DNA of 64,000 nucleotides, from assembly GCF_900185015.1 (NCBI RefSeq), contig NZ_FXYD01000002.1, forward strand, positions 124,001 to 188,000. Reading direction: 5' to 3'. A program made the translations under genes and the position numbers. Under the pieces are notes generated by a model. That model saw only the letters and a program-made list of their open reading frames with translations, was not told the DNA's origin and made no database searches. This document shows, piece by piece, positions 18,846-37,591 of this stretch (the stretch's first letter is position 1; every line of letters starts with the position of its first letter). This stretch comes from Octadecabacter ascidiaceicola (GTDB lineage Bacteria; Pseudomonadota; Alphaproteobacteria; Rhodobacterales; Rhodobacteraceae).

Positions 18846-20462
18846 ATGACAAAATCTAATACAATTGTGGTGACAAGTTTCCTTTTCGCCGTCCTTGCGG
18901 CGATGGGTGGGGCGGCTGTTCTGAAGGGTGGACTTTATATTGGGCGTCACGAAGGCGATACGATGCATTTAATGCAGATCGTGTTCCGCATGGCCGACGG
19001 GCAGGTTCCACATCTGGATTTCATGACCCCCATTGGCGCGTTGGCGTTCTGGCCGATTGCGGTTTTGGTCAAGGCGGGTATGGGCATCGGAATGGCGGTG
19101 CTTTGGTCGCAAGTCATTATGGCGGTTCTGTTTTCCCCTGCGATCATATGGTTGGCGCGCACGCGCCTGTCCCCTGTTCTTGGCGCGATGTTTGGGTTGT
19201 TTGTGTTGGTACTTCTGCTGGCGCTGGTCCACGGGGAATCCCAACGCTCCATTTCCATGTCGATGCACTATAACCGCTTGGCGTGGGCGGCGGCGTTCAT
19301 CGCGATTGTGACCGCCCTTATCCCGCCCAAAACGGGGCGTGGCACGGTCGATGGAGTGATTGTTGGCGCAATGATTTGCGTGATGGTCATGATCAAAATG
19401 ACCTATTTCGTTTCTTTTGCGGCCCCGATTTTGCTGGCGTTGTTCCTGACGGGTCAAAAGCGGGCGATTGTCGTTGGCCTGATTACCGGCCTTGTTATTG
19501 CGGGCGCGATTACGCTGTTTACGGGGCTCGAGTTCTGGTTCGCCTATGCGCAAGACCTGCTGACTGTGGCAGGGTCCGAGGTGCGTTCCGCGCCGGGTGA
19601 AAAGCTGTCTGCGGTGATGGGTGCGCCAGCCTATATTGGTGGATCACTGGCGGTGGTTGCAGGTGTTATTTTCCTGCGCCAAGCGGGGGTTGAAACCGGT
19701 GGTTTGGTGCTTTTGCTGCTAATCCCTGGGTTCTTTTACGTCACCTACCAGAATTTCGGCAATGACCCGCAATGGTTGTTGTTGCTGGCCGTTCTGTTGC
19801 TGGCACTGCGCGAAGACGTGGGCGAGATTGTGAATGGCTGGGGGTGGAACATGCGCGACGCGCTTGGGGCTGTGGCGGTGGCGGCGCTCGCGCTGACGGC
19901 GCCGTCGTTCTTTAACCTCGCCTATAGCCCGTTTCGTCATATGAATGTGGTTGAGGCTGACTATGCGCCGATCATGTCGCGGGGTGGCATTCACCGTGAC
20001 CTACAGGGCCTTGATCTGCGGGTGAACCGCGTGGATGCGCGGGTTGCGTTGGACGGTGTCGTGGCAGGGCTGGAACCCTACGAAAACCGCGACGAACAGC
20101 CGACATTCATGGGCGAAACGATCCCTAATTGTACGGTTGAACTCGGCTTGCCGATCATCTTTGAAGCGATGGTGCGCGATCTGGAAGATGCAGGTCTTGC
20201 CGATGGGCGTTCCTTGTTCGCGGCCGACTTGTTCTCTAGCCACTGGCTGTTTGGCGATCTGGAACCAATGGAAAACGGCGCGCCTTGGTACTACGGCGGT
20301 CTTCCGGGGATTGAGGACGCGGATTACCTGTTGGTGCCGCTGTGCCCTGTGGCGCAAGACTTGCAGGCATTGATCCTGACGGCGTTTGAAGAACGTGAGG
20401 TACCGATCGAGGCGACGGAAATCCGCCGGACCGAGCTTTATATCTTGTACGAATTGGGCTGA
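18846..20462 (+). CDS. Multi-pass membrane protein, possible GT-C glycosyltransferase
   Basis: A 538-residue integral membrane protein with about ten hydrophobic segments (first at residues 8-28, last near 345-365) and a soluble C-terminal domain of about 170 residues. The first outside loop reads RHEGDTMHLM near residues 34-42, with acidic residues E36 and D38 where GT-C glycosyltransferases carry their catalytic acid, and DFMTPIGALAFWP follows as in dolichyl or polyprenyl-phosphate sugar transferases. The start ATG 18846 follows AGAGGCAGG. It lies alone on the plus strand inside the Tad locus, tail to tail with cpaA (stops adjacent). A polyprenyl-phosphate-sugar glycosyltransferase is a reasonable guess, not proven. 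Confidence 0.6.
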   Translation: MTKSNTIVVTSFLFAVLAAMGGAAVLKGGLYIGRHEGDTMHLMQIVFRMADGQVPHLDFMTPIGALAFWPIAVLVKAGMGIGMAVLWSQVIMAVLFSPAIIWLARTRLSPVLGAMFGLFVLVLLLALVHGESQRSISMSMHYNRLAWAAAFIAIVTALIPPKTGRGTVDGVIVGAMICVMVMIKMTYFVSFAAPILLALFLTGQKRAIVVGLITGLVIAGAITLFTGLEFWFAYAQDLLTVAGSEVRSAPGEKLSAVMGAPAYIGGSLAVVAGVIFLRQAGVETGGLVLLLLIPGFFYVTYQNFGNDPQWLLLLAVLLLALREDVGEIVNGWGWNMRDALGAVAVAALALTAPSFFNLAYSPFRHMNVVEADYAPIMSRGGIHRDLQGLDLRVNRVDARVALDGVVAGLEPYENRDEQPTFMGETIPNCTVELGLPIIFEAMVRDLEDAGLADGRSLFAADLFSSHWLFGDLEPMENGAPWYYGGLPGIEDADYLLVPLCPVAQDLQALILTAFEEREVPIEATEIRRTELYILYELG

Positions 20463-20969
20463 TCAGAACAGCGGGATCGCGAGGTAAACGATCAGGACCG
20501 CACCCATTGGAAAGCCCATTGGGAAGCGCTTCTTTTGTGCCCAGCTTTCCCAATCTGGAACCATATTGCGCACCGCTGGGATCGATCTGGCGATGCGATG
20601 GATCGCAAGACCCGCCGCCATACCGGCCCCAAGTAGCATAAGGACAAATCCAGCGTCGTCTAAGGCCACAAAAGGTGCCGCCGATGCCAGAAATTTACTA
20701 TCGCCTGCACCCATCGCACCAATCGTGTTCAAAAGGATCGCCACTATAAGAACAACCCCGAAGTGTGCGTAACGCCACAAATAATCGCTAAACGGCATCA
20801 CAAAAATGCCCACGACCACAAATATGATTGCAAGGGCGTCGGTGGACCATGTGGGGATCTTCATTGCACGTAGATCGTTCCACGCAACATAGATGCACAA
20901 GGGTGCCACGAAAATCAGGAACGCAATGGATTGCGTGACTGTGACCGAGACTTCAGGAAAGGCGAACAC
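20463..20969 (-). CDS. cpaA: CpaA/TadV type prepilin peptidase
   Basis: Type IV prepilin peptidase (peptidase A24 family), 168 residues with about four to five membrane segments, the short single-domain form found in Tad loci. The two catalytic aspartates are visible: YVAWNDLRAMKIP near residue 31, and GAGDSK (the GxGD motif) near residue 90. It cleaves the leader of Flp prepilins after a Gly. It is the last of the minus-strand run from tadZ and sits two bases after the TPR lipoprotein gene. Its stop lies next to the stop of the opposite-strand membrane protein. Confidence 0.92.
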   Translation of the reverse strand: MFAFPEVSVTVTQSIAFLIFVAPLCIYVAWNDLRAMKIPTWSTDALAIIFVVVGIFVMPFSDYLWRYAHFGVVLIVAILLNTIGAMGAGDSKFLASAAPFVALDDAGFVLMLLGAGMAAGLAIHRIARSIPAVRNMVPDWESWAQKKRFPMGFPMGAVLIVYLAIPLF

Positions 20970-20971
20970 GT

Positions 20972-21829
20972 TTAGTTCGTCACATTGTCTTCAAGCGCGC
21001 GAAGCGACCGTACCGCGGCTTCAAAGTGCTGCGGATGCGTGTCGATAGCTTCACGAAGTAGACCGCGACCGATGGTCAAATCGTTCTGCTTGATCGCTGT
21101 GAGTGCCAGTGTGTGCAGCAACTGTGCGCGTTCGATCTGGGTCATCTGGATAACCGGAAGGTCGTAGTTGCGTTGCGCACCGCGTGCCAAAACGAGGTTG
21201 TTCTTGGCGGTAAACAGGTCTGGGTCATTGCGCAGGGCGTCGGTGAACAAACGCTGCGCACCGGAATAGTCACCGCGTGTCAGCTTAGAAAAGCCCCAGT
21301 TATTGAGGACGCCAGCAGGGGATGTTGTGAGGCCCACAGCCGTTTCATAGAAACTATCCGCGTTTTCCCATTCTTCGTTGCTGTCTGCGACCATCGCCTC
21401 AAGGCGATACCGCTTAAATGTTTCATGGGTCGGTGGAATTGCATCGAGGGCGGCTTCTGCAGCGGTCCAATCATTGGTGCGGATCAAGGCATCTGCGTAG
21501 TTGATCTGGTCATTCAGAGTTGAATCTTCGTGATCAACAACGTCCTTCCAAGCAGCGGCTGCTTCAGCAGGGCGGCGGGCGCGGATCAGGGATTTCGCGA
21601 GGCCACGCATCAGGTCAATACGGCCCGGGTCATTGGTCGACGCGCGGAAGAAGTAATTCACGGCCTCATTTGGGTCCGCGACGGTCAACATCACATCATT
21701 GAGGTTGGTTTCATCGACAACGTTCACGTCTTGCAACGCGCGTTCGACTTGTGCTTCGCCAGACTGATCGCACGCGGCTAATGCCAACGTACCCATCAGG
21801 GCTGCGGAAATAACGATAGGATGGCGCAT
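20972..21829 (-). CDS. tadD: TPR lipoprotein of the Tad locus (TadD-like)
   Basis: Lipoprotein of 285 residues with lipobox ALAAC (Cys at residue 20) and a chain of tetratricopeptide-type helical repeats through the rest, including VLNNWGFSKLTRGDYSGAQRLFTDAL. TadD is the outer-membrane pilotin-like lipoprotein that helps the secretin assemble in Tad systems. A second TPR lipoprotein is encoded directly upstream; I cannot tell which of the two fulfils the TadD role. The gene is part of the tadZ-to-cpaA run. Confidence 0.82.
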   Translation of the reverse strand: MRHPIVISAALMGTLALAACDQSGEAQVERALQDVNVVDETNLNDVMLTVADPNEAVNYFFRASTNDPGRIDLMRGLAKSLIRARRPAEAAAAWKDVVDHEDSTLNDQINYADALIRTNDWTAAEAALDAIPPTHETFKRYRLEAMVADSNEEWENADSFYETAVGLTTSPAGVLNNWGFSKLTRGDYSGAQRLFTDALRNDPDLFTAKNNLVLARGAQRNYDLPVIQMTQIERAQLLHTLALTAIKQNDLTIGRGLLREAIDTHPQHFEAAVRSLRALEDNVTN

Positions 21830-21858
21830 GTTTGTTGCGTCCTTTTACTGCTCTACCT

Positions 21859-22419
21859 CTACAGTGTCGACAGGAGCAGCACGTCGCCGGTGCCCCGCCG
21901 CACCAATTGGAACGGTTCGTTCTCTTGCTGAGTAGTATTAAACGGATTTTCTAAATTTGCGAGCGCCAAGCGCAGGTTGTCCCGAATTTCGTCGGAATTG
22001 CCGTTATCCGTGGCAAATGCGCGACGAAAAACCTGTGCCGCTTCGCTGGTTTTGCCGCGTTCCATCAAAATAACACCCAAATTGTTCCACGCAGCGGGGA
22101 AGGCTGGGTCTTGTTCTACGGCGCGGCGCAATAGGCTTTCGGCTTGGTTAAGGCGCCCGAGCTTAAGGTTGGCGGACCCAAGTGCCGACAATGTATCAAC
22201 ATTCAGTCCTTGTTGGCCAGCGGCACGGGTGTAGGCGCGCAGGGCTAAGTCGTATTCACCCGCAGCCATCAGGCGATGCCCGACCTCAAGACCATCAATG
22301 CTGGAATTACCAGAAACGCCTGGGGCGAAGACGCGCTCGCCTTCAGTTGGCGCAAAAGCGCCCTCACCACAGCCGGTGAGGACGCTTATCGCGGTTAGTA
22401 TAGCTACAAGTCTTCGCAT
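21859..22419 (-). CDS. Second TPR lipoprotein of the Tad locus
   Basis: Lipoprotein of 186 residues with lipobox LTGC (Cys at residue 17) and about three tetratricopeptide repeats, such as ALGSANLKLGRLNQAESLL and AWNNLGVILMERGKTSEAAQVF. It lies eight bases after tadC and 29 bases before the larger TPR lipoprotein. Tandem TPR genes at this position are common in alphaproteobacterial Tad clusters. It probably helps secretin or machine assembly at the outer membrane. Confidence 0.82.
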   Translation of the reverse strand: MRRLVAILTAISVLTGCGEGAFAPTEGERVFAPGVSGNSSIDGLEVGHRLMAAGEYDLALRAYTRAAGQQGLNVDTLSALGSANLKLGRLNQAESLLRRAVEQDPAFPAAWNNLGVILMERGKTSEAAQVFRRAFATDNGNSDEIRDNLRLALANLENPFNTTQQENEPFQLVRRGTGDVLLLSTL

Positions 22420-22427
22420 GTGGGCCT

Positions 22428-23405
22428 TTAGAAGTTGGCGGCTTGAAGTGTCTCGTAGATATTATAGATGGACGGCCCGATGAGGATGATAAGAAGCGGA
22501 GGAACCGTAAACATCATCGTTGCGAGTGTCATTTTTGTCGGTAGCGTGTTGGCCTTTTCCTCGGCGCGCATTACCCGTTTATCCCGCATTTCCGCAGAGA
22601 ACACGCGCAGCGCTTCGGCAATGGATGTACCGAACTGGGTCGACTGGATCAAAACAGTCACGAAGGACGCAATGTCGGACACGCCTGTACGTTCGGAAAA
22701 ATCGCGCAGAACTTGGGTTTTGTCCTTACCGGCTTTCATTTCGTTGCTGACGGTTTCGTATTCTTCAGCCAGTGCAGGGAAGCCTGACTTTAGTTCGTGT
22801 GAAACGCGAATGATGGCTTGGTCGAGGGACTGACCCGCTTCAACACAGACCAGCATCATATCCAGAGAGTCAGGAAAGCCGTTAACCATTTCTTCCTGAC
22901 GTTCCTTCTGGCGCTTACCAACCCACCATTTCGGGAGGTAGTAACCAGCCATACCTGGCCCAAGGATCGCCATGATCGTGTCCTTGGTTGACGGATCACC
23001 CGTGGAAGATTTGTAAACCGCATAGGCAACGCCCAGCAAAAGCAGCGTGATACCAAGGGCGAACTGCGCGAAGTGGTAGGTTTTCACGGCAGACTTCGTG
23101 CGGTAACCCGCTTGGATCAGTTTGAGGCGGATCGCAGAGTATTCTTCCTCGTCCTGTGGTTCCAGAAAGCTGGAGTATTTATCCAGTTTGTCTGTACCCT
23201 GACTGGCGCGCAGCTTTTCAGGGCTGTTGCGCGAACCGGAATTCGCAGAGGCTTTCAGCCTGTCCAGCGGGTCGTCCTGCTTTTGCAACATTGCCGGAAG
23301 CACCAGCAAGATCAGCAGCACACCCAACATCAGGATGGCGATAAGGGGGCCGAATGGACCAAGAAGCTCGGTCAGTTTGGCGTTGATGGTGTCTAAGAAA
23401 GCCAT
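22428..23405 (-). CDS. tadC: TadC, inner-membrane platform protein
   Basis: Type II secretion F-domain protein of 325 residues, one of the two platform proteins of the Tad machine. It has one N-terminal membrane segment (about residues 18-38), two more around 105-155, the F domain with MVNGFPDSLDMMLVCVEAGQSLDQAI near 175-200, and a C-terminal segment near 290-315. It follows tadB by five bases, as in most Tad operons, and is expected to form a hetero-complex with TadB above the TadA ATPase. Confidence 0.94.
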   Translation of the reverse strand: MAFLDTINAKLTELLGPFGPLIAILMLGVLLILLVLPAMLQKQDDPLDRLKASANSGSRNSPEKLRASQGTDKLDKYSSFLEPQDEEEYSAIRLKLIQAGYRTKSAVKTYHFAQFALGITLLLLGVAYAVYKSSTGDPSTKDTIMAILGPGMAGYYLPKWWVGKRQKERQEEMVNGFPDSLDMMLVCVEAGQSLDQAIIRVSHELKSGFPALAEEYETVSNEMKAGKDKTQVLRDFSERTGVSDIASFVTVLIQSTQFGTSIAEALRVFSAEMRDKRVMRAEEKANTLPTKMTLATMMFTVPPLLIILIGPSIYNIYETLQAANF

Positions 23406-23410
23406 ATCAA

Positions 23411-24379
23411 TTACACCTTAATGTTCACGAGACGACGCATGACGAATACGTTCGTTGCCAAGAAACCAGCGACAACCAAACAGGCAGGGATAAACGCGGA
23501 AGTTTCTTTAACGGCGTCGTAGTAGTTTGGCTGAAGCAGGTTGATCATGACAAGTGCGCCCAGCGGGAACACGGACAAGAACATACCAGACCATTTGGCT
23601 TCAGCGGTGATCGCTTTCACACGGCGGAACAGTTTGAAACGTGCGCGAATAACCTGCGCCAAGCCGTGCAGAATTTCAGCCAAGTTACCACCAGCGGTTT
23701 GCTGAATGGTCACGGCCACCGCCAAAAAGCGCATATCCTGCATGTCGATACGTTCGGCCATTTGTTTAAGGGTCTCGCCCATGTCACGACCATAAGCCGC
23801 CTCATCAGAGATCACGCCCATTTCAGTGCCAAGTGGATCGGGTACTTCGCGGGCCACGATCGCCACAGCAGAGCTGAACGGGTGACCGACACGCAAAGAG
23901 CGCACCATCAATTCAACCGCGTCAGGCAGTTGTTCTTCGATCATGGAAATGCGCTTTTTGGCTTTGCCGTTGACCCAAAAGAAAATACCACCAACGCCCA
24001 TCGCAACGGAAACGGCTGCGCGGATTGGCAGGGACGTCGCCGTGCCGACAGTGAGACCCATGAAAGCAACACCACACAACACCACCATCAGCATCATCAG
24101 CTGGGCAGGGGTAAAGGCAATGTTGGCTTTCTGGGCTTTGGAGGCCAGCAGCGAGTACAAAGGAATGTTCTTTGAACTCATATGCTGGCTCATCTCCTTG
24201 CGGAGTTGGTCCAGAACTTCCTCGCGGTTGCCACCTTTCTCCAACAAATCAAGGCGACGGTTCACCTTGTTGTTGAAGTTAATGCTTTTGCCGAAGGCAA
24301 CGAGGTAGATGCCGTTTACCAATACGATACAGGCCACAAAGATCAGGCCGTAGATAATTGGTTCTGCTGAAATAGTCAT
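23411..24379 (-). CDS. tadB: TadB, inner-membrane platform protein
   Basis: Type II secretion F-domain protein of 322 residues. Membrane segments are near residues 7-27, 93-135 and 265-315, with the F domain between (LPDAVELMVRSLRVGHPFSSAVAIVA, and TIQQTAGGNLAEIL). It pairs with TadC to form the platform that couples TadA ATP hydrolysis to pilin insertion. It starts 12 bases after tadA, in the same run. Confidence 0.94.
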   Translation of the reverse strand: MTISAEPIIYGLIFVACIVLVNGIYLVAFGKSINFNNKVNRRLDLLEKGGNREEVLDQLRKEMSQHMSSKNIPLYSLLASKAQKANIAFTPAQLMMLMVVLCGVAFMGLTVGTATSLPIRAAVSVAMGVGGIFFWVNGKAKKRISMIEEQLPDAVELMVRSLRVGHPFSSAVAIVAREVPDPLGTEMGVISDEAAYGRDMGETLKQMAERIDMQDMRFLAVAVTIQQTAGGNLAEILHGLAQVIRARFKLFRRVKAITAEAKWSGMFLSVFPLGALVMINLLQPNYYDAVKETSAFIPACLVVAGFLATNVFVMRRLVNIKV

Positions 24380-24391
24380 TTTTTCAGTACC

Positions 24392-25849
<1,458 letters not shown>

Positions 25850-25861
25850 TCATTCTCTCCT

Positions 25862-27130
25862 TTATGCGGTTGCTACAACGTCGGTCGAATTGACCTCGTG
25901 CACGGATTTAGCAAGCTTCGCGATCTCTTTGCGCAGCGGGTTTTTTGCGATGCCTTCTGCCATTGGAACACCGTGATCGGCGTTCTGGGCGATTGCCTTA
26001 CCGCCGTCAGGCAGTTGCACCTCGATGTTGATCCCGAGGCTTTCAGCAAGACGCTTAATGCGGCTTTTACCATTCAGATCTGTGAATTTCGGGGCGCGGT
26101 TCAAAACAAAACGAAGTTTCTCGAACGGCAGCTGCTCACTCTGGAGGGCGCGTTTGATGCGAAGCGTGTTCTGTGCCGACCGCATGTCCAACTCAAGCGT
26201 CGCGAAGTAAACGTGCGCCTTTTGCAGAACGGTTTCGGACCATTCGACCATTGTCTTTGGCATGTCGATGATCACGTAGTCGAAATTCGTACGTGCCATT
26301 TCGATAACACGGTCAATGTCTTCTGGTGAGAGCAGGTCCAGCGGGATCAAATCTGTTGGGGCTGTCAAAACCTGCAACTTCTGCTCAAACGACAGAAGGG
26401 AATGCATGAAGCTTTCGCTGTCCATGCTTTCAGTGTCTTGCAGCATCTCGAAAACCGACTCGCGGCGAGGCAGGTCCAGATAGGTGGACACCGAACCGAA
26501 CTGGAAATCGAGATCAAGTATACAAACCCGTGGGCTTGGTGGCGCATCAACGCCTTTGATCTTTGGTGGTTCCATATTGGCGAGTTCCCACGCGAGGTTC
26601 ACGGCCAAAGTCGTGGCACCTGTGCCGCCGGACATGCCTTGAACCGGGATCACCACACCGTTGTGGTCGCCCGTTGCTTTGAGTTTATTCTGGATCTCAG
26701 GCGCAACGGCCGCAGGTTCTGGCGGTGTCAAAACACGATCAATTGCTTGGGCAAGTTCACCTTCAGGAAGCGGGTAGGGGACGAATTCATCGCCACCTTC
26801 GCGCAGCAACCCGTGCAGAGATGCCGGGGATACGTCCTCAGCGATCAGTAATACTTTGATATTGCGTTGTTTTGCGGCGCGGACGATCTCGGAGATGACG
26901 GACAAATCACCTTCATCTTCCTCATCCAGCGCGATTGCGATGAACTCGAGATCAGCGGCTTCAGGCTGCTCAAGGAACGGCAAGGCATCACCGAAACCCA
27001 AATCACCCCAGCTCTCGCCAAGGCACGTTTCCATGTCTTCGATCAAAAGATCGAAGTTCTGTACATCGCGACTCACTGTGCATGCAGTGATCGGCTGTGG
27101 TTCAGGCTGTAACATATGCGTACTACTCAT
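25862..27130 (-). CDS. tadZ: TadZ (CpaE), pilus-localising ParA/MinD-like ATPase
   Basis: A 422-residue protein with an N-terminal receiver-like domain (about 20-130) lacking a clear phosphoacceptor, and a C-terminal MinD/ParA ATPase domain with a deviant Walker A, GMSGGTGATTLAVNLA near 164-179. CpaE/TadZ proteins mark the pole or site of Tad pilus assembly and recruit TadA. It is the first gene of the tadZ-A-B-C run; the terminator of the upstream operon lies 220 bp before it, so the 27131-27349 gap should hold its promoter. Confidence 0.93.
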   Translation of the reverse strand: MSSTHMLQPEPQPITACTVSRDVQNFDLLIEDMETCLGESWGDLGFGDALPFLEQPEAADLEFIAIALDEEDEGDLSVISEIVRAAKQRNIKVLLIAEDVSPASLHGLLREGGDEFVPYPLPEGELAQAIDRVLTPPEPAAVAPEIQNKLKATGDHNGVVIPVQGMSGGTGATTLAVNLAWELANMEPPKIKGVDAPPSPRVCILDLDFQFGSVSTYLDLPRRESVFEMLQDTESMDSESFMHSLLSFEQKLQVLTAPTDLIPLDLLSPEDIDRVIEMARTNFDYVIIDMPKTMVEWSETVLQKAHVYFATLELDMRSAQNTLRIKRALQSEQLPFEKLRFVLNRAPKFTDLNGKSRIKRLAESLGINIEVQLPDGGKAIAQNADHGVPMAEGIAKNPLRKEIAKLAKSVHEVNSTDVVATA

Positions 27131-27349
27131 TGCCTTTTGGTCCTCTTACCCAATTAAACGCCGCGTTTGTTTTGCGTCCGCTTCCGTCTTTTGCCCTCAG
27201 AATCAAATCGCACTTAGGGCTTTGTCAGGTGTGTTTATGTTGAGGAAAGGGGGCAGGAATGGGGCCACATCTGCCCATTTGTGCGGTAATTAGCGACGGT
27301 AGCGAAATAACCGGAGGGTTGTTTCCAGATCCGTGCACCCGCAAAAATG

Positions 27350-27373
27350 AAAAAGGGGCCCCGAAAGGCCCCT
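27350..27373 (-). terminator. Intrinsic terminator after the secretin-lipoprotein operon
   Basis: On the minus strand, AGGGGCC and GGCCCCT form a perfect stem with a short loop and are followed by a run of T (the plus strand shows AAAAA before the stem). It lies 38 bases after the OmpA-type lipoprotein gene and separates that unit from tadZ. Confidence 0.88.
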
Positions 27374-27411
27374 GAACTCTTAGATTAGTATCGCCGCAAC
27401 TGTCAGAAGGG

Positions 27412-28089: not shown

Positions 28090-28107
28090 TGCCCCGATTC
28101 CCATCAT

Positions 28108-29532
28108 TTAGTCCAATACGTAGCCATATGAGCCGCTGAAATCCTGTCGTGCAACCTCACCGGCGCCGCCTTGTTGTGGTGCGTTCTCTGCCGCGACGCG
28201 ACCAAAGAGGAACAAATCACGTTCGGTCGGAGGGCGCACACGGTCCGTTGGAAGCGCAAGGGCTTCGCCACGGGTCGGTGTTACAAGATGCGGCGTTACG
28301 ATGATAACCAGCTCTGTTTGTCGGCGGCTATATTGAGCTGACCGGAACAATGCGCCGAGAACAGGGATATCACCCGCCCACGGAACCTGACCAGACAGAT
28401 CAACGAAGTCGTCGGACAAAAGCCCAGCGATTGCAAAGCTTTCGCCATCACGCATTTCAACAGTTGTTGATGTTTCGCGTGTTTTGAACGCTGCAATGCT
28501 AAAGCCGTTCTGCGAGAAACCGTTGGTTGGATCAAGCGAGCTTACGGAAGCCTTAAGTTCGAGATTGATTATGTCGCCATCAATCACACGCGGAATAAAG
28601 TCCAATTCGATACCGAATGGCTTATATTCAACAGTAACTGAGCCCGAGTCCTGTGAAATTGGTACGGGATACTCGCCGCCAGCGAGGAAACTTGCTTCTT
28701 GGCCGGAAAGGGCTGTCAAATTCGGTTCCGCAAGGGTGCGAACAACACCGCGGCTTTCGAGGGCTTCCAAAAGGATGCCAACTTCCACGCCACCTGCGTT
28801 GAAACCAAACAGGAATGCACCAGAGTTGCTGTTGCTTGCGGGTGTTGTCCCGTTAAGCGCCAATGTTTGCGCTGTAGAGCCAACAGTTGTCCCTGTTCCC
28901 GCAGATAGGCCAAGATCGCCGCCCAAAGTGTCGCCGCCCAAAGAAAGCGAGGAGCTGAGGGATTTTGATACCGAGCGCTGCATTTCTGCGAAACGGACGC
29001 GCAACATGACCTGCTGCGTTCCGCCAACACTCATGAGGTTGGAAACGCGGTCGGGTGCGTAGCGGTTGGCCAGCTGCAACGCGCGATCAAGGCGCGCAAC
29101 GGAAGAAACAGTGCCGGAAAGAACGATACCGTCGTTCGCGGTGCGAACTTCGATGTTTTCACCAGGCAGGATCTGCTCGAGGCGTTCTTTGAATTCTGCG
29201 ATATCTGGGGTCACGTGAACTTCGACGTTTGTAATAAGACGTCCGTCACCGCCCAAAAGGGTAAGTGTGGTACGACCCGGTTCCTTACCCAGAACATAAA
29301 TCGTGCGATCCGAAAGCGACGAGATGTCAGCAATCGTTGGGTTCGCGATCGAAAGTTCGGTAAATGGAACGTCGCTCTCTACAACGACCGCCCGGTTCAT
29401 TGGCACGTTGAGCGCGCTGGAAGGAGCGCCCCGCATAACTTGAAGGGTCTCAGCGGTAAGCTGAGCCGGTAGGTTCGTGAATGTAAGAGCCAACCCAGTT
29501 AGGGCTGCCTTGATAAATCTATTCTGTGTCAT
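28108..29532 (-). CDS. cpaC: CpaC (RcpA), Tad outer-membrane secretin
   Basis: Secretin of 474 residues that forms the outer-membrane pore for the Flp pilus. It has a signal peptide ending near QLTAE, a pilus-secretin N-terminal domain (about 45-105), a BON-like segment (about 108-170), and the C-terminal secretin domain (about 235-425) with VPWAGDIPVLGALFRS and ELVIIVTPHLV, the hallmark segments. It precedes the OmpA-type lipoprotein with no gap. The start ATG follows an AGAGGCAGG site. Confidence 0.95.
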   Translation of the reverse strand: MTQNRFIKAALTGLALTFTNLPAQLTAETLQVMRGAPSSALNVPMNRAVVVESDVPFTELSIANPTIADISSLSDRTIYVLGKEPGRTTLTLLGGDGRLITNVEVHVTPDIAEFKERLEQILPGENIEVRTANDGIVLSGTVSSVARLDRALQLANRYAPDRVSNLMSVGGTQQVMLRVRFAEMQRSVSKSLSSSLSLGGDTLGGDLGLSAGTGTTVGSTAQTLALNGTTPASNSNSGAFLFGFNAGGVEVGILLEALESRGVVRTLAEPNLTALSGQEASFLAGGEYPVPISQDSGSVTVEYKPFGIELDFIPRVIDGDIINLELKASVSSLDPTNGFSQNGFSIAAFKTRETSTTVEMRDGESFAIAGLLSDDFVDLSGQVPWAGDIPVLGALFRSAQYSRRQTELVIIVTPHLVTPTRGEALALPTDRVRPPTERDLFLFGRVAAENAPQQGGAGEVARQDFSGSYGYVLD

Positions 29533-29830
29533 TGTGACCTGCCTCTAATGTCACGCCCGAAGCGGGCTTTTGCCCGTCATTAGATTGAACCTGCGCCAAA
29601 TCCGCATTATTTGCAAGAATCAATGTGTTGGGGTGCATTGTTTATGTGGGTAACTGGCAACAGGTGGGTTTTGTAGGTTTCGATTTAAACTGAAACAGAC
29701 GCCAACGGCGGGGCCAGGGCGTCTGCTTCTGTTTAGGTTGGATTTGTGCAATTTATACATTCCTGCGGGCGGGACACGTACGAATTGAACGAAGCCAAAT
29801 CAGTTGGTTAGCTGTTGCGGTTGCGTCAGC
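29533..29830. other. cpaC-cpaB intergenic region
   Basis: About 300 bases without a gene. It holds the terminator of the cpaB unit at 29696-29735 and, nearer cpaC, a small hairpin (GGGC/GCCC stems around 29556-29572). The remaining AT-rich part upstream of cpaC probably contains the cpaC promoter. I see no small open frame in it. Confidence 0.5.
29696..29735 (-). terminator. Intrinsic terminator after cpaB
   Basis: Perfect 8-bp stem CAGACGCC/GGCGTCTG (29696-29703 and 29718-29725) followed on the minus strand by TTTCAGTTT. It lies about 105 bases after the cpaB stop and splits cpaB from cpaC transcription. Confidence 0.75.
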
Positions 29831-30688
29831 TTAGTTTGTGCAAGGGATCGGAATGTCGATCACTTCGGCACCGCGACGAGTACGGATGGAACACTCTTGT
29901 TCTGCTTCGATCTCTGGTGCGGGTGCTTGCTGCACAATTCCCAAAAGGCTAGCTTGGTCGACTTCGATCGCACCTGAAACGGTGTCATCGGAACGTCCGA
30001 CAAGTGACAATGATAGGTTGCCAGTTGCTTGAGCTTGGGCAAGTGCGGCTACTTGGTTCGGGGAAACCTGAACTGTAACAGTCCGCGCAATTGTTGCACC
30101 GGTACGACCGCTTTCGGACGTTTGGTCTACGGCGACCAATTGTACGCCTTCTTGGATTAGCTTCGTAACTTCGCTGCTGTGTCCGTTCCCGCCATTTTCA
30201 ATGCGGCCGGTCCAATAGACGTCAACACGGTCACCAGGGTTAAGGAAACCAGATACGCCGGAAGACACGTCAACTTCGATCGTAAAGGCACGCATACCAC
30301 GGGCGAGAAGGGCGCTAATACCGGCAACTTCACCTGGTTCCGTGACTTTCGCAGCCAGAATAACTTCATTCGGTTCCATTTGGCGCGTTACTACACGCAA
30401 TTCCTCTGGACCGTTTGAGAACAATTCCTCTTCGGTGCGAAATGCACCCTCTGGGAGGAATGGTTCTGCATATTTGATCAAAACAATATCTTCTGCCGTA
30501 ATCTGTTCGCCGTGCTCCATAACACGGTTAACTGCGAAGACATCCACTGTCGGGACGGCCTGCGCTAAAGCTGCGCGTTGCAGGTTTAGATTGTTGTTCT
30601 GTTCCTGAAAATATCCTTGCACCATATAGATGGCAAAGCCCGCGAGGCCCATGCCGACGATAAGGACAAGTCCGAATACTGCTCGCAT
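29831..30688 (-). CDS. cpaB: CpaB (RcpC), Tad secretin-associated protein
   Basis: Periplasmic, membrane-anchored protein of 285 residues. I chose the ATG at 30688 (MRAVFGLVLIVGMG) because AAAGGAAAG precedes it and it opens with the family's N-terminal membrane segment. A SAF domain (about 45-110; VFAVNRVMEHGEQITAEDIV) and the RcpC/CpaB core follow (MRAFTIEVDVSSGVSGFLNPGDRVDVY). A pair of Cys near the C-terminus (EQECSIRTRRG and IPIPCTN) may form a disulfide. CpaB assists secretin function and pilus stability. It follows the third flp gene. Confidence 0.92.
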   Translation of the reverse strand: MRAVFGLVLIVGMGLAGFAIYMVQGYFQEQNNNLNLQRAALAQAVPTVDVFAVNRVMEHGEQITAEDIVLIKYAEPFLPEGAFRTEEELFSNGPEELRVVTRQMEPNEVILAAKVTEPGEVAGISALLARGMRAFTIEVDVSSGVSGFLNPGDRVDVYWTGRIENGGNGHSSEVTKLIQEGVQLVAVDQTSESGRTGATIARTVTVQVSPNQVAALAQAQATGNLSLSLVGRSDDTVSGAIEVDQASLLGIVQQAPAPEIEAEQECSIRTRRGAEVIDIPIPCTN

Positions 30689-30821
30689 TGTCTTTCCTTT
30701 CGGAGTTTGTGCCAGTTCCTGCCGGCACGGTTTTACTAAATACAATAGTACAAAAAGAATGCGGCTACATTGTGCCGCACTCTTGTTCATGCTGGGGAAT
30801 TTTGAGTGCCGTCTTTACGCG

Positions 30822-31007
30822 TTAGTGCGTAACGATGTCCTGTGAACTCAAGCGTGCCCCGATGCTAGTAGATGTATCTGTCGCACCGGCGGCAATCATC
30901 GCGATCAAGGCGACGGCCAAACCAACGATTGCGGCAGTAAGAACAACCCAATCGACAGTGACAGCGCCATCTTCGCGCGCGCGGAATGATTTTAAGTACT
31001 TTAACAT
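30822..31007 (-). CDS. Flp-family type IVb pilin, divergent copy
   Basis: Prepilin of 61 residues. The basic leader ends in REDG, and the cleavage motif G|AVTVDW fits the Flp rule G|XXXXE/D-Y/W, so the mature pilin starts with AVTVDWVVLTAAIVGLA. The hydrophobic helix resembles the two upstream flp copies but the C-terminus differs (TDTSTSIGARLSSQDIVTH). It lies 133 bases before cpaB and after a strong terminator, so it may be transcribed separately from the other two, perhaps with cpaB. Confidence 0.93.
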   Translation of the reverse strand: MLKYLKSFRAREDGAVTVDWVVLTAAIVGLAVALIAMIAAGATDTSTSIGARLSSQDIVTH

Positions 31008-31124
31008 GGTGGCTCCACTTGTAGGGGCGTTTCTGACTTACCCTTAAGTAAACGAAGATTGTGGCGAAAAAGGGCTGGGGTTGTGTTGCTTTGTGGGCGC
31101 ATAAGCCCCTGTTACCAAATAAAA

Positions 31125-31152
31125 AAGGCCGCGCCCTCGGGCGCGACCTTTC
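31125..31152 (-). terminator. Intrinsic terminator after the flp pair
   Basis: Stem GGTCGCGCCC with GGGCGCGGCC around a GAG-type loop, followed on the minus strand by TTTTTT (seen as AAAAAA at 31130 or so on the plus strand). It is GC-rich with a U-run, 20 bases after the second flp gene; with pilins such a structure often also stabilises the abundant short message. Confidence 0.88.
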
Positions 31153-31171
31153 TTTCAGATCGAAACGTAGA

Positions 31172-31357
31172 TTAGTACGTTACGATTGACTGTGCGGACA
31201 GCTGGGAAGAAATCTTTTCACCCAGAGCAGTCGTACCTTGGCCAACAGACGACAGAACAGCGATGCCGAGACCAACGATGGCTGCAGTCAGTACGACCCA
31301 GTCAACAGTTACAGCGCCGTCTTCGTCGTTGCGGAAGTTTTTGATAAAGTTAAGCAT
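31172..31357 (-). CDS. flp: Flp-family type IVb pilin, twin copy 2
   Basis: Prepilin of 61 residues: leader MLNFIKNFRNDEDG, cleavage site G|AVTVDW, hydrophobic helix, and a short C-terminus. It differs from the copy 50 bases upstream by one amino acid (Glu for Asp in the GEKIS segment) and by about ten silent base changes clustered in the middle of the gene. These are the major pilin candidates because of their identity with each other and their terminator. Confidence 0.95.
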   Translation of the reverse strand: MLNFIKNFRNDEDGAVTVDWVVLTAAIVGLGIAVLSSVGQGTTALGEKISSQLSAQSIVTY

Positions 31358-31407
31358 GTGTAGTCTCCAAAAATGTAGATTTGTGTGTGTTTGTCGAAAT
31401 CGACGAA

Positions 31408-31593
31408 TTAGTACGTTACGATTGACTGTGCGGACAGCTGGGAAGAAATCTTGTCACCCAGAGCAGTCGTACCTTGGCCAACAGACGACAGAACAGCGAT
31501 GCCGAGGCCCACGATTGCGGCTGTCAGAACAACCCAGTCTACAGTCACAGCACCGTCTTCGTCGTTGCGGAAGTTTTTGATAAAGTTAAGCAT
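31408..31593 (-). CDS. flp: Flp-family type IVb pilin, twin copy 1
   Basis: Prepilin of 61 residues with the same leader and G|AVTVDW cleavage site as its twin downstream. A GAGGGAC ribosome site precedes the ATG. It is the first gene of the Tad pilin region; the 350-base gap upstream is shared with the divergent lytic transglycosylase and is AT-rich. Two nearly identical genes in tandem raise pilin dose or allow copy replacement. Confidence 0.95.
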   Translation of the reverse strand: MLNFIKNFRNDEDGAVTVDWVVLTAAIVGLGIAVLSSVGQGTTALGDKISSQLSAQSIVTY

Positions 31594-32805: not shown

Positions 32806-32806
32806 C

Positions 32807-34231
32807 ATGTCCACCAAACCACTTGTTCTGGATGCCGACGGCACCCTTTTGCGTACCGATATGCTGCTTGAGGGTATCTGGAAAGGGCTTGGAACTGATC
32901 CTGCCGCGACACTAAAGGCGTTCTCGTTGATAGGGGATCGGGCCGCTTTCAAAGCCGAAATCGCACGGGTCGCGCCGCTGCGTGTCGACCTGTTGCCCGT
33001 AAACGGTGACATCGCTGCAATGGCAGTTGAGGCGAAAGACGCTGGGCGCGAAGTCGCGATTGCGTCGGCCTCTGACATCTCGCTGGTGCAGCCATTGGCA
33101 GACCACTACGGTATTGAGCGCGTTTTCGCGTCAGAGAATGGCGTTAACCTTAAAGGCACGGCTAAAGCCGGTGCTCTTGTGGCGGCCTACGGCGAAAAAG
33201 GCTTCGATTACGCAGGCAACGACAAGAGTGACCGAAAAATCTGGGACCATAGCGACTGCGCGATTGTTGTCGGCAATGCAGGGGGCGGGGCCAAAGGGCT
33301 TTCCAACGTCGTTAAGGTTAACGGCGGCTGGTCCCCGCGTGCAGTTCTGAAATCCATGCGCCCACATCAGTGGGTTAAGAATGTGCTGTTGTTCTTGCCG
33401 ATGATTGCAGCACATGCCTTCTTCTTGGAAACCTTCTTAGCCGTGTGTCTTGGCATCATCAGTTTCTCCGCTGCGGCGTCCTGTATATATATCGTCAACG
33501 ATTTACTCGATATCGAAGCAGATCGGCTGCATGTAAAGAAATGTAAGCGCCCATTTGCCGCCGGAACGGTGCCAATACCGATAGGAATGCTCACATGCGC
33601 CGCCCTTGGTTTGATCGCCCTAGGCGTCGCTGCAATGTTGTCGACACATATGTTTGGCGTTGTCGCTTTCTATATGTCGCTCTCACTCGCCTACTCATTA
33701 CGCCTGAAACGCATGCGTTGGATCGATATCATGGTTTTGGCATCACTTTATACCCTGCGCGTGGTCGCCGGAGCGGCGGCGAGTGGCGTTGATGCCTCAG
33801 TCTTCATGTTGATCTTCATTTTCCCAATATTCATTTCTTTGGGGTGCGTCAAACGAATGACCGAACTCGCGCTGGCAAAGGACGAAAACCCTTTGCCAGG
33901 CCGTGGCTATGCGCGCCGTGACATGGGGGATCTTCTTAACATGTCCGCTGTGGGTATGGTCGGGGCCTTGGTGATTTTCTTCCTATACTCCTATTCAGAC
34001 CAAGCACTCGCGCTCTATCCTGACCAGTGGTTGTTGTGGGTCGCCCTCCTGCCGATTGCAGCTTGGCTCTATCGGATGATCAAATTGGGCTACTTGGGAC
34101 GCATGGACTATGACCCCATCGTATTCGCAATGAGCGATGTTCGAGGGATTGGGTTCTTACTCATCACATTGTCCCTGCTCTTTTACGCGGCAGGACTGTG
34201 GTCCGAGTGGTACGGGCGTTTGTTTGGGTAG
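32807..34231 (+). CDS. HAD phosphatase-UbiA prenyltransferase fusion, DPPR-synthase-like
   Basis: A 474-residue fusion. Residues 1-175 are a HAD-type hydrolase (DADGTLLRTD at 8-17, then IASASD) and residues about 180-474 are a UbiA membrane prenyltransferase with SMRPHQWVKNVLLFLP and IVNDLLDIEADR near 229-240. The pattern RPxQWVKN, ND-x2-D-x3-D and KRPFAAG is that of decaprenyl-phosphate phosphoribosyltransferase (mycobacterial Rv3806c, Azorhizobium NoeC). That enzyme joins PRPP to polyprenyl phosphate; the product is then dephosphorylated. A fused phosphatase would supply that second step. It starts one base after the transglycosylase stop. Confidence 0.85.
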   Translation: MSTKPLVLDADGTLLRTDMLLEGIWKGLGTDPAATLKAFSLIGDRAAFKAEIARVAPLRVDLLPVNGDIAAMAVEAKDAGREVAIASASDISLVQPLADHYGIERVFASENGVNLKGTAKAGALVAAYGEKGFDYAGNDKSDRKIWDHSDCAIVVGNAGGGAKGLSNVVKVNGGWSPRAVLKSMRPHQWVKNVLLFLPMIAAHAFFLETFLAVCLGIISFSAAASCIYIVNDLLDIEADRLHVKKCKRPFAAGTVPIPIGMLTCAALGLIALGVAAMLSTHMFGVVAFYMSLSLAYSLRLKRMRWIDIMVLASLYTLRVVAGAAASGVDASVFMLIFIFPIFISLGCVKRMTELALAKDENPLPGRGYARRDMGDLLNMSAVGMVGALVIFFLYSYSDQALALYPDQWLLWVALLPIAAWLYRMIKLGYLGRMDYDPIVFAMSDVRGIGFLLITLSLLFYAAGLWSEWYGRLFG

Positions 34232-34503: not shown

Positions 34504-34533
34504 TTTACGCTTGCCGCAGGTGCTGATCGAAGA

Positions 34534-35286
34534 TCAGATCGACATCTTTTTGAAGATCGGCTCTGGAATAAGCTTGATGATTGTCATCACTGGCCACCAA
34601 ATCCACTTTGTGTACAGCGTATTGCGTTTCTTACTCAGCGCCTTGTGTATGTCTTGAACTACTGCGTCAGCAGTTGTCATAAAGGGCTGCTTGCCGAGGC
34701 CCTGTGTCATCGCAGTATCCACTGGGCCAGGTTTAACTGTTAGAATATGCACACCGTGGCGTCCCAAAGCATTACGAAGGCCGGACAGGTATGTCGCAAA
34801 GCCCGCTTTAGCCGCGCCATAGACATAGTTGCCGACACGCCCGCGATCACCTGCAACGGAACCGACTCCGACAACTGAACCTGTGCCGCGTTCAATTAGA
34901 ACAGGGGCTAGCATCTGCAAGAACCGAGCGGGTCCGGTGAAACTGTCGGCGATTGTACCGTCGACAAGGGTAGGGTCCGCATCAATTGTCTCTTGCGCAG
35001 GCATTGAACCAACGAACACGGCGCAGTTTATGGTTCCTGTTTGTGCGCTAGCCAGATCAATGATCGCTTGGAATGTATCCGCAACGCGGGCGTCAAAGAT
35101 CACCGGAGTTGCATCGCGCGCGCCGCGGGCTGTTGCGTCATCTGCCGTGGCTTTCAGGTCGTCCATACGGCGGCCCGCTAGGATTACATGCGCCCCTTGT
35201 TCCGCAACCGACCGTGTGAAGGCCTTTGCGATGGTCGAGCTGGCGCCGAGGATAATCCAGGTTTGGTTTGTATTCGTATCGGTCAT
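34534..35286 (-). CDS. Short-chain dehydrogenase, DprE2-like
   Basis: SDR-family oxidoreductase of 250 residues. The nucleotide motif is GASSTIAKA near 14-22 (the TGxxxGIG site in altered form), and the catalytic Tyr-Lys pair lies in YVYGAAKAG near 156-160. It is the third gene of an operon whose second gene is a clear DprE1 homolog (four-base overlap). DprE2 reduces the 2-keto intermediate made by DprE1 so that decaprenylphosphoryl-ribose becomes the arabinose epimer. SDR sequence alone would not fix the substrate; the context does most of the work. Confidence 0.82.
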   Translation of the reverse strand: MTDTNTNQTWIILGASSTIAKAFTRSVAEQGAHVILAGRRMDDLKATADDATARGARDATPVIFDARVADTFQAIIDLASAQTGTINCAVFVGSMPAQETIDADPTLVDGTIADSFTGPARFLQMLAPVLIERGTGSVVGVGSVAGDRGRVGNYVYGAAKAGFATYLSGLRNALGRHGVHILTVKPGPVDTAMTQGLGKQPFMTTADAVVQDIHKALSKKRNTLYTKWIWWPVMTIIKLIPEPIFKKMSI

Positions 35287-36578
35287 TGAGGTGTCCTTAG
35301 GTCTAGGCGACGCGTCATGTCGGTTTGCAGCTGGCCATCTGGGTCAGCCTTGGCGACTGCGCGCGCCCAATTGGAGTGATCTGGGTACATCGATTTAATC
35401 GCGGGCCCCGTGGAAAGCGCATCTTTTGCCAGATACAGTCGCCCACCAGCGTTCAGGGTCGCAGCTTCAAGGCGCTTGATAAGCGCGCGTGCGGCAGGGC
35501 GATTGGGGAAGTCCACAGCAAGCGTGTAGCCCTCCATCGGGAAAGACAAATAGCCTTCGCGCCCTTCACCCATACGTTTCAACACAGCAAGAGGGGAGGC
35601 GAGGCCGGAAGTGGCGATGGTTTGCATGATCGTGCGCAGCGCTTCGGATTGATCTAACGGTACGACGCATTGGAATTGGTGAAAGCCGCGTTTTCCGTAA
35701 AGCTTGTTCCAGTCGTGGATTTTATCTAGCGGGAAGAAAAAGTCCTGCACAGTGCGCACCACGGTGCGGCCCGTTTTCGGGACGCGGCGATAGTACGCCG
35801 CGTTGAACAGCTTCACGATTGCGCTGCTAAGCGCCCAGTGCGGCGCATTGAACGGAACTTTTTTGGTGCCGCGTGCGGTAGGGCGCAGGCCTTTGCAAGT
35901 TTCGCCTTCTTCAACGATGCCACGACCCAGATCTTCACCGGTTGCGGTCGCGTCGATCCATCCTACTGTGTACGGTGCCTGCGAGTTATCAAGCAAGTGT
36001 AGATGCTCGTCCCAATCGCTTGCGCGTTGTTCCGTCACCAACATCATATCGCCGCGCGTGCGGACAAGTTGCAGGGTCGCCTGCGCGATAAGACCTGTTT
36101 GCCCAAGACCGCCGCAGGTGGCGAGCCAGAGAGCTCCAGTCTTTGGTGTTATTTTGCGGGGCTTGTCTTGGATAAGCGTAATCGCTGTCACATGCTGGCA
36201 AAAGCTGCCTGCGAGATGGTGGTTTTTGCCGTGGACATCCATTGCGATTGCGCCACCAACTGTTGCGAAGCCCGTGCCGGGAACGACCGCGGGCATCCAG
36301 CCTTGCGGCGCGAAGACGCGGGTAAGTTCGCCTAGTGTGATACCGGACTGAACGGTTAGTAAGCCTGTTTCGCGATCAAACGCGATGATGCGGTCAAGCT
36401 TTGTCATATCGATGGCTTTGCCACCAGAGTTCAGCGGCGCATCACCGTAAGAACGGCGATTGCCGATGGCGGGGCCAACGTTGCTGAGTTTTTCGACGGC
36501 GTCAGGGGTGGCGATGTCGCCTTTCGCACGCAAGGCGCGACCCCAGCCGGAGTAGGTTTGGTCTTTGGCCCAGATCAT
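35283..36578 (-). CDS. DprE1-like FAD-dependent epimerase oxidase subunit
   Basis: FAD-binding oxidoreductase of 431 residues matching mycobacterial DprE1 (decaprenylphosphoryl-ribose 2'-oxidase) throughout: NRRSYGDAPLNSGG, VVPGTGFATVGGAIAMDVHGKNHH near 100-120, LPLDKIHDWNKLYGKRGFHQFQ-like region near 295-315, and GGRLYLAKDA near 380, which includes the catalytic Lys. The benzothiazinone-target Cys of the M. tuberculosis enzyme (C387, in ICVDFP) is Ala here (LAVDFP, residue 354). It overlaps its neighbours by four bases on each side, so expression is coupled. Confidence 0.9.
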   Translation of the reverse strand: MIWAKDQTYSGWGRALRAKGDIATPDAVEKLSNVGPAIGNRRSYGDAPLNSGGKAIDMTKLDRIIAFDRETGLLTVQSGITLGELTRVFAPQGWMPAVVPGTGFATVGGAIAMDVHGKNHHLAGSFCQHVTAITLIQDKPRKITPKTGALWLATCGGLGQTGLIAQATLQLVRTRGDMMLVTEQRASDWDEHLHLLDNSQAPYTVGWIDATATGEDLGRGIVEEGETCKGLRPTARGTKKVPFNAPHWALSSAIVKLFNAAYYRRVPKTGRTVVRTVQDFFFPLDKIHDWNKLYGKRGFHQFQCVVPLDQSEALRTIMQTIATSGLASPLAVLKRMGEGREGYLSFPMEGYTLAVDFPNRPAARALIKRLEAATLNAGGRLYLAKDALSTGPAIKSMYPDHSNWARAVAKADPDGQLQTDMTRRLDLRTPQ

Positions 36579-37591
36579 ACGGCGATGGCCTTTTTTGAGA
36601 TACGTTCGGCCATCGGGAACACCGCAACGCCGATCAGGATTGCGAACCAGAGGGTGGTGAGGCGAATAACGGCCGTGGCGGGAATGGAAACTTCGAGGGG
36701 GATGCCCTCAAGCGAGAGGAGCGCGACCATAGCGGCTTCGGCACCGCCAACACCGCCCGGTGCACCTGTTAAGCCACCCGCGAGGGTGGAGAAGGTGAAG
36801 ATTGCGATGGCTTTGGCAAAGCCGATGTCGGCGCCCATCCACATTAACAGCAGATGAAAGGCGTAGCCTTCAGCGATCCAACCGATCAGGCCAAGGGCGA
36901 GGGCGGCGGCCATAATGGGGCCGCTGGAAAAGACGGACAGGGAGCGTGCAGCCGTGCGTACGCGGGCCATCAGGCGTGGGAATTTGCCGACGGTGCGATA
37001 AAGAAGGGTGACGCAACCCGCGAGGAGTTTGGGGCGCGTGGCGATGAACGCTGCGACCAATGCGAGGAGCGCGACGGGCATTGCCATCGCGATGCCGCCA
37101 GCAGACAGCGCAATGCCACCTGCGAGGATTAGCGCCATCGCCGCAAGGTCCGATGCACGGTCCATCAGAACCAATGGAGCGGTGCGTTCAACGGCCCAAC
37201 CCGTTTCACGTTTGAGCCAACGCATGCGGATCAGCTCACCCACGCGACCGGGGGTGACGGACATGGCGAACCCGCCCAAGAAATGGCGCAAATCCTGAAT
37301 GAGGGTCGTGGGAAGGCCAAGACGATTGGAAAACAGGTGCCAACGGGCGCCACGAAACAGGTAATTCACAAGGCTGAGAGCAAGCAGGATCACGATTTGC
37401 AAAAGGGTCAGCTGCATCAGCTGATGTTTGGTTTCTTCCCAGCCTGTTGCTGCGGCCAGACCGACAAGGCCCGCAATCACAAACGCAAAGAGCACCCCAA
37501 GCAGGGCGATATCACGCCACCGTCTTGCGGGTCCTTTTGTCGGCTGTGCTGAGATTTCCTCAGTTGTGTTTATACTGCTCATCGTCATCAT
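36575..37591 (-). CDS. Multi-pass UPF0104/LPG-synthase-type membrane protein, putative lipid translocase
   Basis: A 338-residue membrane protein with about eight segments, from the lysylphosphatidylglycerol synthase transmembrane (UPF0104) family. Typical segments are RGARWHLFSNRLGLP, FAMSVTPGRVGELIRMRWLKRETG and GGLTGAPGGVGGAEAAMVALL. It lacks the soluble aminoacyl-transfer domain of MprF, so it is probably a translocase rather than a synthase. First gene of the operon with the DprE1- and DprE2-like genes, which suggests it flips the polyprenyl-phosphate sugar. ATG codons at 37591, 37588 and 37582 are possible starts. Confidence 0.78.
   Translation of the reverse strand: MMTMSSINTTEEISAQPTKGPARRWRDIALLGVLFAFVIAGLVGLAAATGWEETKHQLMQLTLLQIVILLALSLVNYLFRGARWHLFSNRLGLPTTLIQDLRHFLGGFAMSVTPGRVGELIRMRWLKRETGWAVERTAPLVLMDRASDLAAMALILAGGIALSAGGIAMAMPVALLALVAAFIATRPKLLAGCVTLLYRTVGKFPRLMARVRTAARSLSVFSSGPIMAAALALGLIGWIAEGYAFHLLLMWMGADIGFAKAIAIFTFSTLAGGLTGAPGGVGGAEAAMVALLSLEGIPLEVSIPATAVIRLTTLWFAILIGVAVFPMAERISKKAIAV

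What the first reader, a model, noticed from the sequence alone, without database searches (positions are those of the whole stretch)
18846..37591. DPA-type arabinofuranose pathway beside a Tad pilus locus that contains a GT-C-like membrane protein
Seen: a HAD-UbiA fusion with Rv3806c-like motifs, a DprE1 homolog with its HGKNHH and LYLAKD signatures, a DprE2-like SDR and a putative flippase lie within 6 kb of the flp pilin genes. A plus-strand membrane protein with a RHEGD motif in its first loop (18846-20462) sits inside the Tad run. Known: DprE1/E2 plus DPPR synthase make decaprenylphosphoryl-D-arabinose in mycobacteria, Azorhizobium uses noeCHOP for Nod factor arabinosylation, and some P. 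aeruginosa strains attach D-arabinofuranose to type IV pilin by TfpW using the same donor. Inference: this strain may arabinosylate Flp pilins or another envelope polymer, with 18846-20462 as the transferase. This would be a new Tad pilus modification.
Basis: partly seen in the sequence, partly recalled or inferred. Interest (0 to 1): 0.75.

Follow-up and report, generated by a model that had tools for sequence, protein, structure and literature searches.

The report
Sugar-coating system for Tad pili
Many marine Rhodobacteraceae carry, at the two ends of their Tad pilus gene cluster, a membrane glycosyltransferase and the genes that make the arabinose donor it probably uses, which suggests that they decorate this pilus with the sugar known from the tuberculosis cell wall; the target itself is still unproven.

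Summary
The window (Octadecabacter-like, Rhodobacteraceae) has a full Tad locus, with a HAD-UbiA (DPPR-synthase type), DprE2, DprE1 and a flippase-like protein next to three flp genes, and an unannotated 538-aa membrane protein at its other end. That protein matches no Pfam or NCBIfam model, but its AlphaFold model (pLDDT 93) has a GT-C fold; Foldseek's best hit is arabinosyltransferase AftA and its first 14 hits are all GT-C enzymes. Comparison of 198 family genomes gives the main result. The Tad locus is orthologous with and without the system. Where present, the GT-C sits between AAA and tadV, and the donor cassette between the SLT and CoA-transferase genes: two sites about 12-16 kb apart, occupied or empty together. 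DprE1 occurs in 58/61 GT-C-positive and 16/137 GT-C-negative genomes, and all 16 belong to a different, non-Tad DPA locus. A DPA-dependent GT-C serving the Tad pilus is therefore likely. The acceptor, Flp pilin or another Tad or envelope component, is not shown: a Ser/Thr-aromatic pilin tail associates with the GT-C but does not survive a tree control. Four GT-C-positive genomes lack a recognizable DPPR synthase. No held paper describes Tad arabinosylation.

The parts
18846..20462 (+). GT-C fold membrane glycosyltransferase, 538 aa; proposed polyprenyl-P-arabinose:Tad acceptor arabinosyltransferase
   Evidence: AF2 pLDDT 93; Foldseek top hit AftA, first 14 all GT-C; VIA Z 12.6 AftA; invariant E36, D38, H56, SM-YNR, QN..NDP.W; next to AAA in 78/80 and to tadV in 71/80 homologous loci
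32807..34231 (+). HAD-UbiA fusion: proposed polyprenyl-phosphate phosphoribosyltransferase plus 5'-phosphatase
   Evidence: NF006088 482 bits; 8j8j E 1.5e-28; DxDGT and NDxxDxxxD
34534..35286 (-). DprE2-like SDR reductase
   Evidence: NF053786 154 bits, below cut-off; in the cassette of related loci
35283..36578 (-). DprE1 homologue, FAD oxidase
   Evidence: PDB DprE1 4aut 5e-71; HGKNHH, LYLAKD
36575..37591 (-). LPG_synthase_TM/UPF0104-type membrane protein, proposed flippase of the lipid-linked arabinose
   Evidence: PF03706 151 bits, TIGR00374 84 bits; a relative accompanies HAD-UbiA, DprE1 and DprE2 in Indioceanicola L288
31945..32805 (+). lytic transglycosylase (SLT), 1 bp upstream of HAD-UbiA; Tad-locus gene also present without the system
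   Evidence: PF01464 3.2e-26
31408..31593 (-). flp pilin 1, tail AQSIVTY, candidate acceptor
31172..31357 (-). flp pilin 2, tail AQSIVTY, candidate acceptor
30822..31007 (-). flp-like pilin 3
20463..30790 (-). Tad machine genes tadV-tadD-tadD-tadC-tadB-cpaF-cpaE-ompA-rcpA-cpaB
   Evidence: Pfam
17367..18677 (-). AAA ATPase gene that flanks tadV in loci lacking the GT-C; divergent from the GT-C
37805..39141 (-). CoA-transferase subunit pair; follows SLT in loci lacking the cassette (right border)

Best explanation
The window encodes a dedicated three-component-type glycosylation system of the Tad pilus. HAD-UbiA moves phosphoribose from PRPP to polyprenyl phosphate and removes the 5'-phosphate. 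DprE1/DprE2 epimerise the ribose to D-arabinofuranose. The UPF0104-type protein flips the lipid to the periplasm. The GT-C enzyme 18846-20462 transfers the arabinose to a Tad pilus component, most likely Ser/Thr residues of the Flp pilins before assembly. Shown: gene identities, the predicted GT-C fold, and the paired presence or absence at two sites of one orthologous Tad locus. Inferred: the reactions, the flippase role, the donor used by the GT-C, and above all the acceptor.
For: GT-C fold with AftA as best Foldseek hit and high VIA Z to AftA, ArnT, Pmt4 and OSTs. Invariant acidic pair at the tip of the first juxtamembrane helix, where GT-CA enzymes hold their catalytic Asp (PMC12041299). 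DprE1 in 58/61 GT-C-positive and 16/137 GT-C-negative genomes, Fisher 3e-31. Two empty sites in GT-C-negative loci, both filled in positive ones. About 11 changes of GT-C state on the rcpA tree, at least 4 forced by supported branches, with the cassette going the same way in 3.9 of 4 supported pairs. Where the locus is split (G152, G140) flp and cassette genes stay together. Genomes that lack HAD-UbiA in the cassette often have another HAD-UbiA elsewhere (G007, G024, G063, G116, G185). Precedents: P. aeruginosa TfpW pilin arabinosylation (PMC11841053) and the Citrobacter PRP-PPPRS fusion with a GT-C (PMC11127046).
Against: No acceptor evidence: the pilin tail [ST][YF] (18/36 positive against 6/44 negative loci, p 6e-4) is a motif chosen after looking, and with tree control only 4 supported pairs remain. 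G079, G151, G158 and G160 have GT-C and DprE1 but no recognizable HAD-UbiA/DPPR synthase. G112 and G192 have the GT-C in Tad with only unlinked DPA genes. Many Tad loci lack the system. The GT-C has no sequence match to known arabinosyltransferases.
Confidence: 0.62

Rival explanations
1. The GT-C uses the arabinose donor but modifies something other than Flp: another Tad component (CpaB, secretin, OmpA-like protein) or a surface polysaccharide produced together with the pilus.
For: Acceptor not tested; pilin-tail link not significant with tree control. Known pentofuranose GT-Cs mostly act on polysaccharides (PMC11127046).
Against: The GT-C adjoins the prepilin peptidase gene in 71/80 loci, the donor cassette lies beside flp, and both are absent together from otherwise similar Tad loci.
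Confidence: 0.28
2. The DPA cassette serves a general envelope arabinan and lies in the Tad locus by chance; the GT-C is unrelated to it.
For: A second DPA locus type without Tad exists in other family genomes, and Indioceanicola has a similar cassette on a plasmid with no Tad genes detected in the 31 kb fetched.
Against: GT-C and DprE1 co-occur at 58/61 against 16/137, at two separate sites.
Confidence: 0.06
3. The GT-C is a glycosyltransferase with another polyprenyl-linked donor.
For: Four GT-C-positive genomes lack a DPPR synthase; fold alone does not give the donor; Pmt4 and ArnT score as high as AftA.
Against: Co-occurrence with DprE1 and AftA as the top Foldseek hit.
Confidence: 0.04

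Closest known systems
TfpW system of P. aeruginosa/P. paraeruginosa group IV type IVa pili
   Same: GT-C enzyme beside pilin genes; UbiA, DprE1/E2-type D-Araf donor; pilus as target
   Different: Here a Tad (type IVc) pilus and a HAD-UbiA fusion, with the donor genes inside the pilus locus. P. aeruginosa uses a separate phosphatase (PMC11127046). Sequence relation of the GT-Cs not tested.
Citrobacter youngae O1/O2 three-component pentofuranose system (GT136)
   Same: N-terminal HAD phosphatase fused to a UbiA-type phosphoribosyltransferase, a flippase and a GT-C
   Different: Citrobacter uses a MATE flippase, no DprE1/E2, and LPS O antigen as acceptor; here a UPF0104-type protein and DprE1/E2 in a Tad locus
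Mycobacterial DPA pathway with AftA/Emb
   Same: DprE1, DprE2, Rv3806c-type UbiA; AftA is the best Foldseek hit of the GT-C
   Different: No AG/LAM expected; phosphatase is a HAD fusion; flippase type differs; window DprE1 has Ala where the M. smegmatis enzyme has the Cys that benzothiazinones bind
Second ('Hi') DPA locus of Rhodobacteraceae and similar rhizobial clusters
   Same: HAD-UbiA, DprE1, DprE2
   Different: Not in Tad, GtrA flippase, proteins 36-45% identical to those here, own multi-TM protein
RcpC-associated Flp modification in other Tad systems
   Same: Earlier hint, cited in PMC12307814, that Flp pilins can be glycosylated
   Different: The passage read names no sugar donor genes or GT-C

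Membership tests
GT-C (GT-CA) glycosyltransferases | TM core with two juxtamembrane helices between TM1 and TM2 | tested here: met
   AF2 helices 2-26, 36-50, 69-76, 81-106; Foldseek first 14 all GT-C; VIA Z 8-12.7 to GT-Cs
GT-C (GT-CA) glycosyltransferases | Conserved acidic residue at the tip of juxtamembrane helix 1 | tested here: met
   E36 and D38 identical in 78/78; superposition on the catalytic Asp of AftB/ArnT not inspected
TfpW family | Sequence homology to TfpW | not tested
   No TfpW sequence obtainable; no Pfam or NCBIfam match
TfpW-type pilin arabinosylation | D-Araf on pilin Ser/Thr | not testable with these tools
   Needs mass spectrometry
DPA biosynthesis (DprE1) | DprE1 homology and FAD/active-site motifs | tested here: met
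   PDB 4aut 5e-71, HGKNHH, LYLAKD; below NCBIfam equivalog cut-off
DPA biosynthesis (DprE2) | DprE2 equivalog score | tested here: inconclusive
   NF053786 154 of 250 bits
DPPR synthase (Rv3806c) | UbiA-family protein with Rv3806c homology and motifs | tested here: met
   8j8j E 1.5e-28; the NCBIfam decaprenyl-phosphate phosphoribosyltransferase models are below cut-off, NF006088 above
GT136 | Sequence homology to Citrobacter ORF12 | not tested
   Sequence not available here
Tad pilus locus | cpaF, tadB/C, RcpC, secretin, Flp, prepilin peptidase | tested here: met
   Pfam hits for all but Flp; Flp by motif and position

The most novel reading that the evidence does not exclude
A new GT-C family, confined to Rhodobacteraceae Tad loci, O-arabinosylates Flp pilins, perhaps at their exposed C-terminal tails, giving the first arabinosylated Tad pilus; the sugar may shield the pilus from Tad-binding phages or tune adhesion.
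Probability: 0.5. Interest if true: 0.75.

Novelty: new variant of a known kind. Interest (0 to 1): 0.62.

Why it matters
Pilin arabinosylation is known from one kind of pilus in Pseudomonas. Here a different pilus class, in a major marine family, appears to carry its own arabinose pathway and a GT-C with no family name. It would explain an unannotated gene in about a quarter to a third of the family genomes sampled, and would make Tad pilus glycosylation, so far only hinted at, directly testable in culturable strains (Octadecabacter, Loktanella, Maritimibacter, Aliiroseovarius).

Tried and rejected
Sequence-level identification of the GT-C by Pfam, NCBIfam and PDB phmmer gave nothing; GT87 hit 3 of 29 members at best E 0.023. 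Class-wide search outside the family gave only weak partial hits (G263, G477), and none on plasmids. C-terminal domain folded alone: no Foldseek hit at E<=0.001, and only weak VIA rows (Z<=4.3), the best to C-terminal domains of DPY19, AglB and PglB; not used as evidence. Pilin-tail motif: associated, but not with tree control. Ser/Thr density >=4 of the last 8 residues: no difference. Considered that G117 shows Tad-free use of the GT-C; rejected, because it looks like one deletion from mid-dprE2 to tadD1 that also removed HAD-UbiA. TfpW could not be fetched, and the TfpW papers PMC2576659 and PMC3151058 are not held.

Full report
What is there. The window lies in a 3.2 Mb alphaproteobacterial genome (G000:C3:124001-188000) whose closest named relatives by this gene are Octadecabacter (93% identity). 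Between 17.4 and 37.6 kb lies a Tad locus in the order AAA, GT-C, tadV, tadD, tadD, tadC, tadB, cpaF, cpaE, ompA-like, rcpA, cpaB, three flp, SLT, HAD-UbiA, dprE2, dprE1, flippase. dprE2, dprE1 and the flippase gene overlap by 4 bp each, and HAD-UbiA starts 1 bp after the SLT stop, so two operons are likely (sequence).

Donor genes. The HAD-UbiA protein holds a HAD DxDGT motif and a UbiA NDxxDxxxD motif, and aligns with the solved Rv3806c-type DPPR synthase (E 1.5e-28). DprE1 is clear (E 5e-71 to 4aut). The SDR is DprE2-like but under the equivalog cut-off. The same fused arrangement, phosphatase plus polyprenyl phosphoribose synthase, was shown in Citrobacter (PMC11127046). The flippase role rests on family and position only; a relative accompanies the other three genes in Indioceanicola (L288).

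The transferase. 18846-20462 has no match in Pfam, NCBIfam or PDB sequence space. From an alignment of 78 sequences built on loci fetched (alignment A2) AlphaFold2 gave pLDDT 93 and pTM 0.92. Foldseek against the PDB returned AftA first (E 1.6e-3, probability 1.00), and ranks 1-14 are all GT-C enzymes. VIA-align gave Z 12.7 Pmt4, 12.6 AftA (421 residues, 6.0 A), 12.4 ArnT and 12.3 AglB. For a helical model Z near 13 is not decisive alone; the point is that the top rows are one functional class. E36 and D38, invariant in 78 sequences, lie at the start of the first juxtamembrane helix, where GT-CA enzymes carry the catalytic Asp (PMC12041299).

Comparative genomics. In 198 genomes of the family (tabulated) the GT-C is in 61, RcpC in 169, and a true DprE1 in 74. 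DprE1 is in 58 of 61 GT-C-positive genomes. The exceptions are a contig edge (G019) and two genomes with remote homologues only (G102, G113). Among 137 GT-C-negative genomes 16 have DprE1, each next to a high-scoring HAD-UbiA of another class. Fisher p is 3e-31; genomes share ancestry, so the p-value overstates the independent evidence. The examples of that second class that were read lie outside Tad loci; in L235 it has a GtrA flippase and its own multi-TM protein.

Two-site insertion. I fetched 40 GT-C-positive and 60 negative Tad regions. None of the 60 negative regions shows any cassette gene; in those with an orthologous locus (43 rows in the rcpA tree) flp-SLT is usually followed directly by the CoA-transferase pair where the contig reaches. 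In the positive loci not cut by a contig end, 32 of 35 show cassette genes at that place. Of the other three, two have the cassette elsewhere together with flp (G152, G140) and one lacks it (G112). At the other end, 20 negative junctions hold no GT-C, and in 17 AAA and tadV are 57-289 bp apart. In 80 positive loci the GT-C is next to AAA in 78 and next to tadV in 71, the rest being contig ends or rearrangements. So two sites of one locus are filled or empty together.

Tree control. On an rcpA tree of 82 rows the GT-C state changes 11 times, at least 4 on supported branches. The cassette follows in 3.9 of 4 supported pairs, too few for significance by sign test. The association is therefore strong in counts and in position, but the number of securely independent events is small.

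Acceptor. Flp C-termini in GT-C-positive loci often end in Ser/Thr plus Tyr/Phe (18/36 loci against 6/44). The Caulobacter Tad pilin structure has its C-terminal end pointing outward and contacting a phage (PMC11067988), so such a tail would be a reachable site. But the motif was chosen after looking, one clade holds most negatives, and the tree test is not significant. I treat Flp as the most likely acceptor by position, not as shown.

Problems. G079, G151, G158 and G160 keep the GT-C, DprE1 and Tad but have no HAD-UbiA or Rv3806c-like protein that was recognized; G151 (98% complete) has only two ordinary UbiA proteins. G117 lost the Tad core by what looks like one deletion that truncated dprE2 and left the GT-C. 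These are unexplained or neutral.

Literature. Pilin arabinosylation by TfpW in Pseudomonas is known (PMC11841053, PMC12369383). Flp glycosylation was suggested in connection with RcpC (PMC12307814). A study of Tad genes in Rhodobacterales (PMC8383342) does not mention glycosylation. No held paper found joins DPA genes with Tad pili. The library is partial, so absence is weak.

Noticed in passing
35283-36578: Window DprE1 has Ala where M. smegmatis DprE1 has the Cys of ..GWNVCVDFP.. (the benzothiazinone target, from memory), so covalent inhibitors should not act on it.
   Followed up: no
L235:7511-13377: Second, Tad-independent DPA locus type (dprE2, dprE1, GtrA, HAD-UbiA, 578-aa 10-TM protein without Pfam match), likely with its own GT-C.
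   Followed up: partly
G004, G044, G066, G086, G087, G088, G098, G110, G118, G135, G138: UbiA/HAD-UbiA hits without a true DprE1 in the genome; possible ribofuranose donor systems.
   Followed up: no
L228:8122-12151: HAD-UbiA next to a 29% identical relative of the GT-C, without Tad genes nearby and with a TMEM260-like GT-C close by.
   Followed up: partly
G079, G151, G158, G160: GT-C and DprE1 in Tad genomes without any recognizable DPPR synthase.
   Followed up: partly
17367-18677: AAA ATPase next to tadV in Tad loci with and without the GT-C; sub-cut-off similarity to IteA (32.6 of 510 bits). Role in the Tad locus unknown.
   Followed up: no
30822-31593: Flp pilins carry DW instead of the usual EY of the Flp motif and match no Pfam model.
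   Followed up: no
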